The notes under the pieces were generated by a model. The model worked only from the letters and a program-made list of their open reading frames with translations, had not been told where the DNA came from and did no database searches. A program made the translations under genes and the position numbers. A stretch of DNA of 64,000 bases from Bradyrhizobium sp. CCBAU 53340 (GTDB lineage: Bacteria; Pseudomonadota; Alphaproteobacteria; Rhizobiales; Xanthobacteraceae). The stretch lies in the NCBI RefSeq assembly GCF_015291645.1, contig NZ_CP030055.1, positions 6,572,001 through 6,636,000 of the forward strand, written 5' to 3'. This document shows, in pieces, positions 9,949-14,894 of this stretch; position 1 is the first letter of the stretch, and the number at the start of each line of letters is the position of its first letter.

Positions 9949-10650
9949 ATGCGCGTTTTGCTGATTGAAGATGACAGCGCCGTCGCGCAGTCGATCGAGC
10001 TGATGCTGAAGTCTGAGAGCTTCAATGTCTACACGACCGATTTGGGGGAAGAAGGCGTCGATCTCGGTAAGTTATACGATTACGACATTATCCTTCTCGA
10101 CCTTAACCTGCCCGACATGTCCGGTTACGACGTGCTCAAGCAGCTTCGGGTCTCCAAGATCAAGACACCGATCCTGATCCTCTCCGGCCTTGCCGGCATC
10201 GAGGACAAGGTCAAGGGTCTCGGCGTCGGCGCCGACGACTACATGACCAAACCCTTCCACAAGGACGAGCTGGTTGCCCGCATCCACGCGATCGTGCGCC
10301 GCTCCAAGGGTCACGCCCAGTCGGTCATCCAGACCGGCGACCTCGTCGTCAACCTCGACACCAAGACGGTCGAAGTCGGCGGCCAGCGCGTGCACCTGAC
10401 CGGCAAGGAGTACCAGATGCTGGAGCTGCTCTCGCTCCGCAAGGGTACCACCCTGACCAAGGAAATGTTCCTCAACCACCTCTATGGCGGCATGGACGAG
10501 CCCGAGCTGAAGATCATCGACGTCTTCATCTGCAAGCTCCGCAAGAAGCTGGCCAACGCTTCCGAAGGCCGCAACTTCATCGAGACCGTGTGGGGCCGTG
10601 GCTACGTGCTGCGCGAGCCGCACGAGGCCGACGAGCGCATCCCCGCCTGA
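9949..10650 (+). CDS. ctrA: Cell cycle response regulator CtrA
   Basis: This 233-aa OmpR-class regulator has a receiver domain ([10 protein letters not shown]; phospho-acceptor D51 in [16 protein letters not shown]) and a winged-helix DNA-binding domain ([19 protein letters not shown], then FICKLRKKL). The sequence is almost word-for-word that of alphaproteobacterial CtrA. CtrA is phosphorylated through CckA-ChpT and controls replication, division and flagellar genes. The start at 9949 gives the standard N terminus; a longer frame from 9853 is not conserved-looking. chpT is in this same window. The C-terminal tail ends in IPA rather than the Ala-Ala degron seen in Caulobacter. Confidence 0.95.
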
Positions 10651-10697
10651 TCCGTTCACGTCGCGAGCCCCTGTCGGGCTCGCTCCTCCCAGCCTGG

Positions 10698-10729
10698 ACC
10701 CCGCCGCAAATGGCGGGGTTTTGTTTTTT
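10698..10729 (+). terminator. Intrinsic terminator of ctrA
   Basis: A 7-bp stem (ccccgcc at 10699-10705, ggcgggg at 10712-10718) with a 6-base loop is followed by ttttgtttttt. It lies about 50 bases after the ctrA stop. Confidence 0.88.
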
Positions 10730-10738
10730 GGGATAGCG

Positions 10739-12322
10739 TCAGGTGCCGGCGAGGGACGGCGCCATGAAGTCCGGCTTCCAGACCGGGCTGCGCGCGGCTG
10801 CCTCGCGCAGCCGGCCGATCATCGCGTAGCCGATGACGAAGCCGAACGCGAAAGTCGGCAGCACGAAGGACAGCAGGAACGCCCCGGCGGAGACGTGGTC
10901 GACGATCTCCATCACCGGCATCGAGATCATCCGGTGGATGGCGAGCAGCAGCCACAACATCACCGTCATGCCGGCACCAAAGACCAGACCATCGCGGATC
11001 CGCCGCGTCTTGCGCGACCGCCTGCCCCAGGTCGAATCCTGCACCAGCAGCGCGGTCATCGCCCCGACGCCCCAGGGGAAGATCAGAAGCGGCAGCTCGC
11101 GCAGGACGACGTCGGGATAGGATCGATCGGGAAACTGGTAGTAATCGAACGTTGCCTGGATCGGGAAGAAGATCAGGGCGCTACAGAGACCGATCGACAG
11201 GATGAATCCCACCGGCAGGTGGCCGAAGATGGTCTCGTTCGCAAAGCCGTAATACCTCTTGAAATAGTAGATCAGCCAGAAATTCAGGATGAACTGCAGC
11301 GGCGTCGTGACCAGCGTCCGCAGCACGCCGGCGGCCTGGTCTCCGGGAACGTGAATGACCTTGCCGGAGCCAAGCAGCCACAGCAGGCACCAGCCGAAGG
11401 TGAAGGCGGCAACGGTTGCCACGAACTTCGCAATTCCGGGCGGCGGCGGCTCCAGCGTGAAGCCGATCGCGCCCAGCCTGCGCTGGCTGCGCGCCAGCGT
11501 CCATTCGCCGGCGAGCGCGGCGCGCGCTGCGAACAAAAGCAGATTGTTGAGCAGCGAATCCATGTCCTTGCGCAGATCCTCCAGCATGCATCCCGCGGCG
11601 GTCTGTGCGGCGAGCTGAAGCTGGCTGACCGCGCTGCGGCGGGTCGAGAGCTGGTCGAGCGCCTGCCAGTCGTCAGGCTCGACCCGGCTGTCCTCCATGA
11701 TCCCACCATAGATCTCGGCGCAGCTCTTGAGCACGCGCACGGTGCGGAAGCAGAGCTGGTCGTAGACCGCGAGCAGCTCCGCATAGAGCTCGGAGTTGCG
11801 ATCCATGAAGGCCTCATGCTCGGAGGTCCAGCGCTCGAGATGGAGCATCAGCGCGGAGATCTTGAGGAAGCGCGACTGGATCGCGGTCGATTGCGTGGCG
11901 CGGAAGTCGTCGATCTGGTAGCCGATCCTGGACAGCTTGCGCTGCAGGCTCGGCATGTCATCCGGACCAACCTGGAACGGCGCCGCAGCCAGCACGTCGC
12001 GCAGCGCGAGTGCGCGCACAGGTATCCCGGCCAATCCATGACAGAACGTCCGCCACGCTTTCGGCGCGAACGGAACGAGCCAGGCGAGCATCAGCAGCCA
12101 GACCGCGGCGAGCGGCGACAGCTTGTCCGGAAGGACGGCGTAGATCACCAGGAACGGCGTGACGAACACCGCGAGGCCGAGCAGAAACAGCGGACGCGTC
12201 GTGAACGAGCGGGTCCCCTTCAGCGTGTGAAACCTGAACCAGTAGAACAGCACGACCAGAAGCGGTCCGCCGAACGACTCGAAGATTGCATTCAAGGATT
12301 CTACGACATGAGCAAGCGGCAC
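10739..12322 (-). CDS. Polytopic membrane protein of unknown function, partner of the CHAT protein
   Basis: I do not recognise the family. The 527-aa protein has an N-terminal pair or trio of membrane segments (around residues 15-100), a long polar central region of about 200 residues rich in helices (LQRKLSRIGYQIDDFRATQS ... LDQLSTRRSAVSQLQLAAQT), and five or so C-terminal membrane segments (from FVATVAAFTFGWCLLWLL onwards). No catalytic motif is visible. It lies 75 bases downstream of the CHAT-TPR protease on the same strand, which suggests one operon. A membrane effector, a sensor, or an unrelated housekeeping protein are all possible. Confidence 0.75.
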   Translation of the reverse strand: MPLAHVVESLNAIFESFGGPLLVVLFYWFRFHTLKGTRSFTTRPLFLLGLAVFVTPFLVIYAVLPDKLSPLAAVWLLMLAWLVPFAPKAWRTFCHGLAGIPVRALALRDVLAAAPFQVGPDDMPSLQRKLSRIGYQIDDFRATQSTAIQSRFLKISALMLHLERWTSEHEAFMDRNSELYAELLAVYDQLCFRTVRVLKSCAEIYGGIMEDSRVEPDDWQALDQLSTRRSAVSQLQLAAQTAAGCMLEDLRKDMDSLLNNLLLFAARAALAGEWTLARSQRRLGAIGFTLEPPPPGIAKFVATVAAFTFGWCLLWLLGSGKVIHVPGDQAAGVLRTLVTTPLQFILNFWLIYYFKRYYGFANETIFGHLPVGFILSIGLCSALIFFPIQATFDYYQFPDRSYPDVVLRELPLLIFPWGVGAMTALLVQDSTWGRRSRKTRRIRDGLVFGAGMTVMLWLLLAIHRMISMPVMEIVDHVSAGAFLLSFVLPTFAFGFVIGYAMIGRLREAAARSPVWKPDFMAPSLAGT

Positions 12323-12397
12323 GATGAACTCCTATTGCTAGGGTTCGCTGTTGAAAGGCGCGCCGGACACAGCGGCATCCGGCGACGTGCGTGAGCG

Positions 12398-14215
12398 TCA
12401 CGCAGCCTGGGCGACCATCTTGGCCTTCTGGACCAGGAGATCGATATTGTCGGGGGCCAGCGCAATCGCGCTGTCCATATCGTTCTGGGCCTTCGCCACG
12501 TCCTTGATCTGGGCATAGGCATTGGCCCGCGACACCAGATATTTCGGCTCGTTCACGTCGGTCGCGATCGCCGTGCCGAAGGCCTTGATCGCCTCCTCGA
12601 CATAGCCGCGCTTGTCGTCGGTGCCGGCCGCCGTCATGCTGACGATGCCCTTGATCCAGTAGAACTCGGCGCTCGTCGGCTTGAGCTTGATCGCTTCGGT
12701 GATGTCGCTCAGCGCGTTCTCGTAGAGACCGACCGTGACGTTGAAATTGGCGCGGCGCACGAAATATTCCGGCTTCGCCGGATCGAGCTTGAGCATGTAG
12801 GCGAAGCTCGCGGCGGCCTTCGGAATCTGCTTCTGCTTGTGCTGGAGCGTGCCGAGATCGAAATAGACTTTCGCGAGCCGGACCGAGAGCTCGGAATCGT
12901 CGGCGAGGAGGCCATGCAGCTCCTGCCCGCGCCGGGTCAGGTCCTCAAGCGCCTCGATCGTCATCGGGGTAGTCGGCAGCGCCTCCATGAACTCGTCGCG
13001 GCGTCGTTGCAGCATTTCCTTCGAGGGGCGCGCCGCCTCGGGCGGCAGTGCCAGCGGCTGCGGCGCCTCGACGTCGAAGATCCTTCCGTCCGGCGAGCGC
13101 ATGTAGAGGACGGGAATTCCCCACTCCACCCGCGACTTCTCCTGGATGAACTTGCGCGCGAGCGTCACCGCATCGTCGATCGGACGGTTGCCGGCGAGCG
13201 CGGCGTAAAAGCCTTCCGACATCGAGATCGCGGCGTTGTCGGTGATCGGAAACTGCATCGCCACCACGGCCGGCAGCCATCCGGTCTTCATCAAGCCGAT
13301 CGCCGGATTGCCGAAGCGGTCGCCGACGTTGATCCTCGCGCTCTCGCAGCAATTGAGCACGATCAGGCGCAGGCTGCGCCGCGCCCCCGTCAGCATCATC
13401 GCAAGGTCGGAGGCGAACTTCTTCACCGGCCTGCCGTCCTCGTCGACCATGACGACGAAGCCGCTGGCACCGGCGCCGGGCGAGGCTTCCTCGACGCCGC
13501 CATGCCCGATGAAGTGGAAGATATGCCATTCGCCTTCGAGCAGCTTCTTCATCAGGTCCTTGCCGGTGCCGCCGGGGACCCACTGGAAATCAACCTTGCC
13601 TTCGTGCTGGAGCGCATCGATGCCCTTGTTGATGCGGTCGCGCTCCTTGACCACGTTGAGCTTCGGCCATTCGCTGGTGGAGGGATCGGCGATCATGCCG
13701 AGGATGCGCAGGGGTCCCTTGACACCCATCCGGCTGACGCCGCCTGCCGTCTCGAGATAGCGCACGATCGGGCGCGTCAGGCTGACGAAGCCGGGCATGT
13801 CGTCTTCGTCGTAGAGATATTCCCACGGCAGTCCGGCAAGGTCGGCCGCCTCGATGCGCAGCTTGATCCTCAGATCCTGCGCCGCGCCCTTGCTGCGCTC
13901 GTAGATCCGCTGGATCGACGGCACGTCGGTGAAGACGCTGCGGAACACGCCGCGGCCGAAATCGCGCAGCACCTGCTCGCCGCGCGTGGTCGGGCCCTGG
14001 CGATTTTTCTCGTCAATCTCGAGGACGGCGTTTTCCAGTTCGCCCCGCAACTTGGCCAGTTCGCCCGGCGCGGAGAACCAGAACTTGACCTGGCTCTTCG
14101 GCGCCTCGCCCGCCGGCGACCTGACGACCCGGCCGTAATATTGCTGAGGGCCGCCGCCCACCGGCAGATCGGAGCCGATCTCGAGCTCGAAATCTTCGTA
14201 TTCGGCAACGGGCAT
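12398..14215 (-). CDS. CHAT caspase-like protease with C-terminal TPR repeats
   Basis: The 605-aa protein has an N-terminal region of unknown fold, a CHAT (caspase HetF-associated with TPR) peptidase domain (about 115-385), and TPR repeats (about 430-600). The catalytic dyad is visible: His238 in FHFIGHGG and Cys290 in IVLNCCESA. LAGLPWEYLYDE is the usual CHAT N-terminal strand. CHAT proteases in bacteria cut partner proteins, including gasdermins and CRISPR-linked substrates; the substrate here is unknown. I chose the ATG at 14215, which has gtgagg upstream, over an in-frame GTG at 14227. The membrane protein immediately downstream is the obvious candidate partner. Confidence 0.87.
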   Translation of the reverse strand: MPVAEYEDFELEIGSDLPVGGGPQQYYGRVVRSPAGEAPKSQVKFWFSAPGELAKLRGELENAVLEIDEKNRQGPTTRGEQVLRDFGRGVFRSVFTDVPSIQRIYERSKGAAQDLRIKLRIEAADLAGLPWEYLYDEDDMPGFVSLTRPIVRYLETAGGVSRMGVKGPLRILGMIADPSTSEWPKLNVVKERDRINKGIDALQHEGKVDFQWVPGGTGKDLMKKLLEGEWHIFHFIGHGGVEEASPGAGASGFVVMVDEDGRPVKKFASDLAMMLTGARRSLRLIVLNCCESARINVGDRFGNPAIGLMKTGWLPAVVAMQFPITDNAAISMSEGFYAALAGNRPIDDAVTLARKFIQEKSRVEWGIPVLYMRSPDGRIFDVEAPQPLALPPEAARPSKEMLQRRRDEFMEALPTTPMTIEALEDLTRRGQELHGLLADDSELSVRLAKVYFDLGTLQHKQKQIPKAAASFAYMLKLDPAKPEYFVRRANFNVTVGLYENALSDITEAIKLKPTSAEFYWIKGIVSMTAAGTDDKRGYVEEAIKAFGTAIATDVNEPKYLVSRANAYAQIKDVAKAQNDMDSAIALAPDNIDLLVQKAKMVAQAA

Positions 14216-14489
14216 TTTGAGCCTCACTCAACAAGATCTTGATCTGAACGAAGCATCCCTCGAATGAGCGCGGCCGGTCGAAATCACGTCGGCCGCAATA
14301 CAATGCCTCGGACTATCGCACACAACCAGGAGAGGCATTTGTGAAGCATGTCTCATACAGCCCGAAAATTTGTGCGGCGCCCCGCGCGCGCCGCGGAGCC
14401 CGCTTGTTTCTGGGGATCGAACCTGCCGGCCCCGTGCAGCGACCAAGCGATCGTGCCAGAATTCGCGCGCGCCAAATTCGGACCTCCCC

Positions 14490-14894
14490 ATGATCCTGCA
14501 ATCGCTCGCCGGCCTGCCCGCCTTCCTGGTCTATTTCTGCACCGGGTTGGTCGCGATAGTGGCATATCTGTTCGTCTACACGCGGATCACGCCGCACAAC
14601 GAGTTCCAGCTGATCCGGGACAACGATCCTGCCGCAGCGATTGCGCTCGGCCTTAGCCTGCTCGGCTTCGTCGCACCGCTGTTCAGCGCGATCGCGCATT
14701 CGGCCAACGTGCTGGACTGCCTGATCTGGGCTATCATCGCGCTGATCGTGCAAATCGCCGTCTTCTACATCGTGAAAATTCCGGTGCCGAACCTGTCGGG
14801 GCGGATCGCCGCCGGCGAGCTCGCGCCCGCCATCTGGCTCGGCCTGTCCTCGCTTGCCGCGGGCCTCCTCAACGCCGCCTGCATGATCTACTGA
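14490..14894 (+). CDS. DUF350 (YjfL-like) inner-membrane protein
   Basis: This 134-aa protein is nearly all membrane: four hydrophobic segments (LAGLPAFLVYFCTGLVAIVA, IALGLSLLGFVAPLFSAIA, LIWAIIALIVQIAVFYIV, IWLGLSSLAAGLLNAACM). DUF350 proteins such as E. coli YjfL have this size and layout. The function is unknown. It is the first gene of a cluster with a YjfM/YgiB-like lipoprotein-like gene and a glutathionylspermidine-synthase-like gene, the same set as E. coli yjfL-M-C. The start at 14490 begins just before the first membrane segment; a longer frame upstream is not supported. Confidence 0.75.
   Translation: MILQSLAGLPAFLVYFCTGLVAIVAYLFVYTRITPHNEFQLIRDNDPAAAIALGLSLLGFVAPLFSAIAHSANVLDCLIWAIIALIVQIAVFYIVKIPVPNLSGRIAAGELAPAIWLGLSSLAAGLLNAACMIY

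What the first reader, a model, noticed from the sequence alone, without database searches (positions are those of the whole stretch)
10739..14215. Two-gene CHAT protease plus polytopic membrane protein cassette
The membrane protein starts 75 bases after the CHAT gene on the same strand, and has an unusual layout: membrane segments at both ends around a ~200-residue helical cytosolic block. A protease next to an uncharacterised membrane protein is the configuration of several bacterial death/defence modules, in which the protease cuts the membrane partner. This pairing is not one I know as described.
Basis: inference. Interest (0 to 1): 0.7.

Follow-up and report, generated by a model that had tools for sequence, protein, structure and literature searches.

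The report
CHAT protease with nine-helix membrane partner
A caspase-like protease gene in soil bacteria is found beside a gene for a membrane protein of an unnamed family; the two stay together across three diverged versions, which points to a dedicated, probably cell-defence, protease-membrane switch not yet tested in the laboratory.

The parts
12398..14215 (-). CHAT-TPR protein gene, 605 aa (P0001)
   Evidence: AlphaFold2 model m789d3bfd0e85, pLDDT 82
13127..13843 (-). CHAT (caspase/separase-like) domain, residues 125-363; in the fold match the alignment to Csx29 runs from residue 5 to 375
13502..13504 (-). His238 codon (FHFIGHGG), predicted catalytic histidine
   Evidence: FHFIGHGG in 30 of 30 pair loci; H in 56 of 56 aligned CHATs
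13346..13348 (-). Cys290 codon (LNCCES), predicted catalytic cysteine; aligns with the Cys of LNSC in CHAT2
   Evidence: C in 56 of 56
12404..12895 (-). C-terminal TPR array, residues 441-604
   Evidence: Pfam TPR families, helices in model, TPR fold matches
12323..12397 (-). 75-nt intergenic stretch with a ribosome-binding-like GGAG before the MP start; no terminator-like site in it; 35-77 nt long in the 29 loci with intact MP
10739..12322 (-). Nine-helix membrane protein gene, 527 aa (MP, P0002)
12062..12289 (-). MP N-terminal membrane part, residues 12-87 (3 helices)
11426..12061 (-). MP cytosolic helical block, residues 88-299, the best conserved part
11564..11581 (-). Invariant EDLRKD motif (residues 248-253) in the cytosolic block; EDLR recurs at the aligned place in MP2 (not in MP3)
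11633..11686 (-). Lower-confidence loop region, residues 213-230, with the conserved stretch around EPDDW-AL: candidate docking or cut site (inference)
10814..11425 (-). MP C-terminal membrane part, residues 300-503 (6 helices)
10696..10721 (+). Terminator-like hairpin with T-run between convergent ctrA and MP
9949..10650 (+). Flank: OmpR-type response regulator gene, read as ctrA (name recalled); left neighbour in 30 of 30, with about 3 kb of other genes between in one (L106)
14493..14894 (+). Flank: DUF350 gene; right neighbour in 30 of 30, with about 3 kb of other genes between in two (L103, L122)

Best explanation
A dedicated two-component, membrane-bound CHAT protease switch of the biological-conflict kind. 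CHAT-TPR is a separase/Csx29-like cysteine protease that docks on the conserved cytosolic block of its nine-helix partner. An infection or stress signal, read through the C-terminal TPRs and/or the partner, sets the active-site loop. The protease then cuts inside the partner's cytosolic block, so that the membrane part changes the inner membrane (leak or loss of function) and stops or kills the cell. Shown here: gene pairing, co-inheritance, domain make-up, invariant dyad, predicted topology, and homology of three pair types. Inferred: docking, cleavage, membrane action, defence role.
For: MP in 30 of 265 and CHAT (E <= 1e-60) in the same 30 of 265 genomes; adjacent, same strand, same order in 30 of 30. 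CHAT-MP distances rho 0.93 (0.89 after removing fliI), pair versus flanks 0.53-0.63, flank versus flank 0.88, 28 loci. In metagenome-rich protein lists 34 of 117 MP entries share the exact longest-contig length with a CHAT entry, 0-4 under 20 shifted controls (one CHAT entry is matched twice, so at least one is chance). Second pair type in 13 of 13 MP2 loci and a third in one, none beside fliI, the 100%-type ctrA or DUF350. MP versus MP2/MP3 profile score 87.5 over 434 columns; 60 block shuffles at most 40.3, reversed 22.7. His238 and Cys290 invariant. CHAT model like Csx29 and separase. Paralogous CHAT in an AAA/TIR/STAND island. Type 2 adds a DUF7379/DUF7363/CHAT gene (DUF7379 looks like an a/b-hydrolase, by appearance), which recalls the caspase plus a/b-hydrolase pairing of ternary conflict systems (PMC7159879, passages). 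MP has about twice the dN/dS of CHAT (0.26 versus 0.13). In the two genome loci with one broken member, MP or MP2 is broken and CHAT intact.
Against: No test of cleavage, toxicity or defence. The locus is beside core genes, not in a defence island; no match in the plasmid collection or in viral contigs (MP only). The carriers share one site, so 30 genomes are not 30 independent events (4 changes on the fliI tree, at least 3 forced by well-supported branches). Purifying selection on both genes, no sign of positive selection. The MP fold has no confident match to a pore or channel. The sister 938-aa CHAT lost its Cys and has no MP nearby. The least conserved parts of MP are the periplasmic loops, which suits a sensor at least as well. 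CHAT entries cut short or frame-shifted after the CHAT domain also occur in the protein lists (P0161, P0168, P0169), so loss is not limited to MP.
Confidence: 0.4

Rival explanations
1. MP is the sensor and CHAT the executioner. The nine-helix protein senses membrane or periplasmic damage, and its cytosolic block switches on the bound CHAT protease, which cuts other cell proteins (in type 2 perhaps the neighbouring hydrolase-CHAT).
For: Periplasmic loops are the least conserved part (0.59 and 0.29 mean identity) and the cytosolic block the most (0.79 and 0.60). In type 2 the CHAT has no TPR yet MP stays, so MP may be the input. A second CHAT enzyme is attached in 13 of 13 type-2 loci.
Against: Nine helices are more than a sensor needs; the predicted periplasmic loops are only 1-18 residues; fast loops are common in membrane proteins.
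Confidence: 0.3
2. A non-defence regulator of envelope or cell cycle: the protease works in normal physiology near ctrA, comparable to HetF in cyanobacteria.
For: Same site beside ctrA and the DUF350 operon in 30 of 30 loci; type-2 loci too have a response-regulator gene (31% identical to ctrA) nearby in 13 of 13; weak HetF-model hit, 26 bits with cut-off 1200; CHAT under strong purifying selection.
Against: Present in only 30 of 265 genomes; the same interval is empty or holds other ORFs in 25 of 25 non-carriers looked at; pair alleles do not follow flank phylogeny; types 2 and 3 lie elsewhere.
Confidence: 0.17
3. The membrane protein is an inhibitor or antidote that keeps a toxic CHAT protease silent (toxin-antitoxin type).
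For: Tight pairing and order.
Against: In both genome loci with one broken member, MP is broken while CHAT is intact (L117/G034; L164/G470); draft assemblies, so errors are possible.
Confidence: 0.08
4. Chance neighbours kept together only by linkage at one locus.
For: Carriers share one site.
Against: Three diverged CHAT-MP pair types at different loci; in 265 genomes never MP without CHAT, and CHAT without MP only as one paralogue.
Confidence: 0.02

Closest known systems
EACC1-caspase two-gene membrane-associated conflict system (Kaur et al. 2020, PMC7159879; passages read)
   Same: Two genes, a caspase-superfamily peptidase and a constant membrane component, patchy, tied to conflict-system networks
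   Different: EACC1 is the 5' gene with a single membrane helix and the caspase protein is 3' with many fused effectors; here CHAT is 5', the partner is 3' with nine predicted helices and matches no known family
Craspase: Csx29 (TPR-CHAT) with Csx30 (PMC10028731, passages)
   Different: Neighbours at the pair loci are not Cas7-11; TPR is C-terminal, not N-terminal; the partner is a polytopic membrane protein
MoxR-vWA ternary systems with caspase and a/b-hydrolase (PMC7159879, passages)
   Same: A CHAT paralogue 64% identical sits two genes from a MoxR-like AAA gene in L126; type 2 carries a DUF7379-CHAT gene
   Different: No such genes beside the pair loci
SAVED-CHAT (PADLOC PDLC02016; PDB 8tl0)
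   Different: No SAVED domain hit in the protein; the PADLOC match covers only part of the model
Bacterial gasdermin with protease (recalled; PMC10989679 seen in listing only)
   Same: Protease beside a membrane-acting partner; reported from Bradyrhizobium too (recalled)
   Different: Gasdermin is soluble before cutting (recalled); MP is a predicted nine-helix membrane protein

Membership tests
CHAT protease family (PF12770) | CHAT domain above curated cut-off | tested here: met
   55 bits, cut-off 24
CHAT protease family (PF12770) | Conserved His and Cys of the dyad | tested here: met
   H238, C290 in 56 of 56 aligned and 30 of 30 pair loci; the dyad motif itself is partly recalled
CHAT protease family (PF12770) | Proteolytic activity | not testable with these tools
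   needs biochemistry
Craspase Csx29 | Separase-like CHAT fold | tested here: met
Craspase Csx29 | TPR N-terminal to CHAT | tested here: not met
   TPR at 441-604, after CHAT
Craspase Csx29 | Encoded beside Cas7-11 and Csx30 | tested here: not met
   immediate neighbours in 30 of 30 loci are ctrA, MP and DUF350 genes; the three loci with extra DNA (L103, L106, L122) hold a sedolisin-type ORF and one other there (Pfam run for L122 only). The rest of the genomes was not searched for Cas7-11
EACC1-caspase system | 5' gene with a single-helix EACC1 domain | tested here: not met
   5' gene is CHAT; partner has nine predicted helices
EACC1-caspase system | Caspase-superfamily peptidase in a two-gene unit with a membrane component | tested here: met
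MoxR-vWA ternary systems | MoxR and vWA genes next to the CHAT gene | tested here: not met
   not beside the pair. At the 938-aa paralogue an AAA gene (AAA_5 51 bits; bpMoxR 22.3 bits, under its cut-off 27) stands two genes upstream; the ORF between, taken for a vWA gene by position only, had no Pfam hit
SAVED-CHAT | SAVED domain in the same protein | tested here: not met
   Pfam at E <= 0.1 lists CHAT, C25-like and TPR-type families only; PADLOC match covers model 124-287 of 498
Bacterial gasdermin | Soluble beta-rich pore-former with inhibitory C-terminus (recalled) | tested here: not met
   MP model is nearly all helix with nine predicted membrane segments
HetF | NCBIfam HetF score of at least 1200 bits | tested here: not met
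   26.4 bits
Any known membrane-protein fold for MP | Confident structural match in PDB | tested here: inconclusive
MP superfamily (MP, MP2, MP3) | Full-length profile homology | tested here: met
   hhalign 96.8%, 434 columns; controls

The most novel reading that the evidence does not exclude
A new class of caspase-gated membrane executioner: a nine-helix protein, unrelated to gasdermins, that a partner CHAT protease cuts to open or disrupt the inner membrane. It has radiated into three CHAT-MP types inside one bacterial genus, alleles being swapped between strains as a unit.
Probability: 0.28. Interest if true: 0.82.

Novelty: new variant of a known kind. Interest (0 to 1): 0.58.

Why it matters
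CHAT proteases are the bacterial relatives of separase and caspases, and for most of them no substrate or partner is known (recalled). Here is one with a constant, narrowly distributed membrane partner of an unnamed family, kept through three diverged types. That makes a concrete question testable in a non-pathogenic soil bacterium: does a caspase-like protease control a polytopic membrane protein, and is this cell death, defence or envelope control?

Tried and rejected
Remote homology of MP: Pfam on MP and on 37 members (only weak scattered hits, the best repeated one Ala_racemase_N 0.0028 in 10 of 37, judged chance; one member has a fused sugar transferase), NCBIfam, PADLOC, PDB by profile, Foldseek PDB and viral libraries, VIA-align: no usable relative. 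A profile search of a protein database of 5.8 billion returned nearly the same set as the single-sequence search (121 versus 118 entries, three new ones being partial); both scored only the 7999 candidates sharing most words.

Gasdermin-like and HetF-like readings were considered and not supported. A recalled name for a CHAT/transmembrane system ('CATRA') was searched together with 'CHAT domain' and found in 0 papers, so it was dropped. Defence-island reading of the window locus: dropped, neighbours are core genes.

Whether other CHAT proteins also have such a partner: of 10 loci fetched, eight (L149-L156) show no MP-like ORF (phmmer with MP and MP2, E <= 1e-4, ORFs of 120 aa or more); the two with one (L147, L148) belong to the MP2/MP3 carrier G471. 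So among the loci looked at, the pairing belongs to one CHAT lineage.

Distribution outside the genus: MP in 4 of 296 family genomes, 1 of 47 genera; CHAT at E <= 1e-25 in 3 of 297 order genomes, 1 of 122 genera; joint MP profile in 1 of 250 class genomes, 1 of 209 genera: Bradyrhizobium only. These are samples. No protein-database search was made for MP2 or MP3, so they may be wider.

Rows dropped: L117 (broken MP) and L106 (fliI too short) from rates or trees; 25 of the 235 non-carriers were used in the fliI tree. In one search the printed label '28 genomes' is really 29 sequences. The typed listings held 117 of 118 MP rows (P0119 left out) and 118 of 119 new CHAT rows (P0214 has no contig); the CHAT listing itself was the best 120 of 2389.
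Full report
WHAT IS THERE. The window lies in a Bradyrhizobium-type genome (G000, contig 1, 6572001-6636000; genus judged from the named relatives). On the minus strand a 605-aa protein with a CHAT domain (residues 125-363) and C-terminal TPRs (12398-14215) is followed after 75 nt by a 527-aa protein without any Pfam, NCBIfam or PADLOC match (10739-12322). No terminator-like site lies between them, and a GGAG-type ribosome site precedes the second start in nearly all relatives. Hydropathy averaged over 87 relatives gives nine membrane segments, three before and six after a 212-residue block, with charges that place the block and the C-tail in the cytosol. The AlphaFold2 model (pLDDT 81, pTM 0.59) is nearly all helix.

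IS THE PAIR REAL? In a first sample of 146 Bradyrhizobium genomes MP was in 15, and a CHAT hit of at least 63% identity was in the same 15, the next best CHAT being 33-34% identical. In the fuller set of 265, MP was in 30 (profile, E <= 1e-10) and the CHAT protein (E <= 1e-60) in the same 30. Of the 31 CHAT matches, 30 have MP adjacent; the exception is a 938-aa paralogue in G442. In 30 of 30 the order is fliI - ctrA - MP - CHAT - DUF350 (in L106 fliI was seen only in part, at the end of the fetched stretch). Three of the 30 have about 3 kb more: L103 and L122 between CHAT and DUF350, L106 between ctrA and MP, each holding a sedolisin-type ORF and a second ORF of about 400 aa (Pfam was run on the L122 pair only). 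The gap between CHAT and MP is 35-77 nt in the 29 loci with an intact MP; in G034 MP is broken into two frames. In the protein lists, 34 of 117 MP entries share the exact length of their longest contig with a CHAT entry, against 0-4 when lengths are shifted by 1-10 bases either way, and the identities to the window proteins rise and fall together (rho 0.82). This is indirect, since contig names were not shown, and one CHAT entry is matched by two MP entries, so at least one match is chance.

HOW IT IS INHERITED. In 25 non-carrier loci ctrA is followed at once by DUF350 in 14 and by other ORFs in 11 (in 8 of these DUF350 was not within the 1.5 kb fetched). On a fliI tree of 29 carriers and 25 non-carriers the carrier state needs 4 changes, at least 3 of them forced by well-supported branches. 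Among 28 loci with all genes, CHAT and MP distances correlate at 0.93 (0.89 after removing fliI), the two flanks at 0.88, and pair against flanks at only 0.53-0.63. For example G027 groups with G519, G096 and G043 by fliI but carries a pair 61% (CHAT) and 47% (MP) identical to the window's, where those three have 86-90% and 77-79%. The pair is therefore gained, lost and apparently replaced as a unit at one site. dN/dS is 0.13 for CHAT and 0.26 for MP (medians of 406 pairs of 29 loci): both are under purifying selection, MP less. In MP the cytosolic block is best conserved (0.79 among 29 genomes, 0.60 in the 87-member family), membrane helices 0.72 and 0.49, other cytosolic parts 0.72 and 0.50, periplasmic loops 0.59 and 0.29; circular-shift control 15 and 24 of 527 for the block.

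A SECOND AND A THIRD TYPE. The nearest other CHATs in the genus (33-34% identical, 408-418 aa, no TPR hit) turned out also to be followed by a membrane protein of about 540 aa. It was found in 13 of 257 genomes, and in 13 of 13 loci the order is CHAT2 - MP2 - a DUF7379/DUF7363/CHAT protein of about 1110 aa (Pfam was run on the L130 copy). In 13 of 13 a response-regulator gene, 31% identical to ctrA and so not ctrA itself, lies further downstream; fliI and DUF350 gave no hit in any of the 14 type-2/3 loci. In G471 a third pair, CHAT3 (441 aa) - MP3 (598 aa), lies near a gyrB-like gene (gene name by appearance). All three membrane proteins show the 3 + block + 6 layout (single sequences for MP2 and MP3). 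Profile comparison of MP with MP2/MP3 gives 96.8% probability over 434 columns. Repeated with controls the score is 87.5, against at most 40.3 in 60 block shuffles, 22.7 for the reversed profile and 13.7-22.3 for five other ORFs with predicted membrane segments from these loci, given as single sequences. Without the MP3 row the score falls to 56.7 over 304 columns, and MP3 alone scores 48.8, both still above every shuffle. P0001 and CHAT2 align at E 2e-45. None of the 13 MP2 genomes carries type 1, but with these numbers that has a chance of 0.19. The pairing thus holds across deep divergence and different loci, which linkage at one site cannot explain.

HOW IT MOST LIKELY WORKS. A CHAT protease on a membrane platform, used in conflict or controlled cell stop. 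The conserved cytosolic block is the obvious docking face; its EDLR motif recurs at the aligned place in MP2, not in MP3, and the loop 213-230 is well conserved in part but of lower model confidence, a candidate cut site. Whether MP is the membrane effector set free by cutting or the sensor that switches the protease on is nearly even. I put the effector reading slightly first because CHAT carries a generic sensor part (TPR) in type 1 and because the two genome loci with one broken member lost MP, not CHAT, as expected if an unwanted effector is lost. This is weak: both are draft assemblies, and CHAT entries cut short or frame-shifted after the CHAT domain occur in the protein lists (P0161, P0168, P0169). 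Against it, type 2 has no TPR and the periplasmic loops vary most.

AGAINST AND OPEN. Nothing here tests cleavage, toxicity or phage defence. The site is beside ctrA, the family is narrow (Bradyrhizobium only in the family, order and class samples), MP and MP2 gave no match in the plasmid collection and MP none in viral contigs. The MP fold is without a confident match, which is not proof of a new fold.

KNOWN OR NEW. The closest described system is the EACC1-caspase membrane-associated two-gene system (PMC7159879, passages); it differs in gene order, helix number and partner. The caspase plus a/b-hydrolase pairing in the same paper resembles type 2 (DUF7379 as a hydrolase is by appearance). 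Eight searches of an open-licence paper library and passages of four papers showed no CHAT protease with a polytopic partner; subscription papers and preprints were not covered. I call it a new variant of a known kind.

Noticed in passing
window 10651-14492 and L030-L059, L096-L125: The interval between ctrA and the DUF350 operon is a variable site: empty in 14 of 25 non-carriers; others hold sedolisin-like, transposase-like, cupredoxin/cytochrome-like or 380-390-aa ORFs (names from appearance; Pfam run only on the L122 sedolisin). The same sedolisin-type cargo lies beside the pair in 3 of 30 carriers (L103, L106, L122).
   Followed up: partly
L126 (G442 C1:1060000-1077000): Conflict-type island with TIR proteins, a MoxR-like AAA gene, a 938-aa CHAT-TPR protein that has lost its catalytic Cys, and a TIR-STAND-WD40 protein of 1470 aa.
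   Followed up: partly
Could be real or an assembly fusion.
   Followed up: no
protein P0235 (metagenome): A CHAT-TPR relative with an extra N-terminal stretch that looks like an effector-associated (death-like) adaptor domain; by appearance only.
   Followed up: no
L117 (G034) and L144/L145/L164 (G470): The membrane gene of the pair is broken into two frames while CHAT is intact; both are draft assemblies.
   Followed up: partly
L016: The record titled Frankia sp. RB7 carries the Bradyrhizobium locus (MP 78%, CHAT 94% identical): probably a mislabelled or mixed assembly.
   Followed up: no
L130:9223-13433 and the other 12 type-2 loci: Behind MP2 follow a protein of about 1110 aa (DUF7379, DUF7363, CHAT in L130) and, further on, a response-regulator gene, in 13 of 13 loci; in L148 an ORF that looks like its sensor kinase comes next.
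   Followed up: partly
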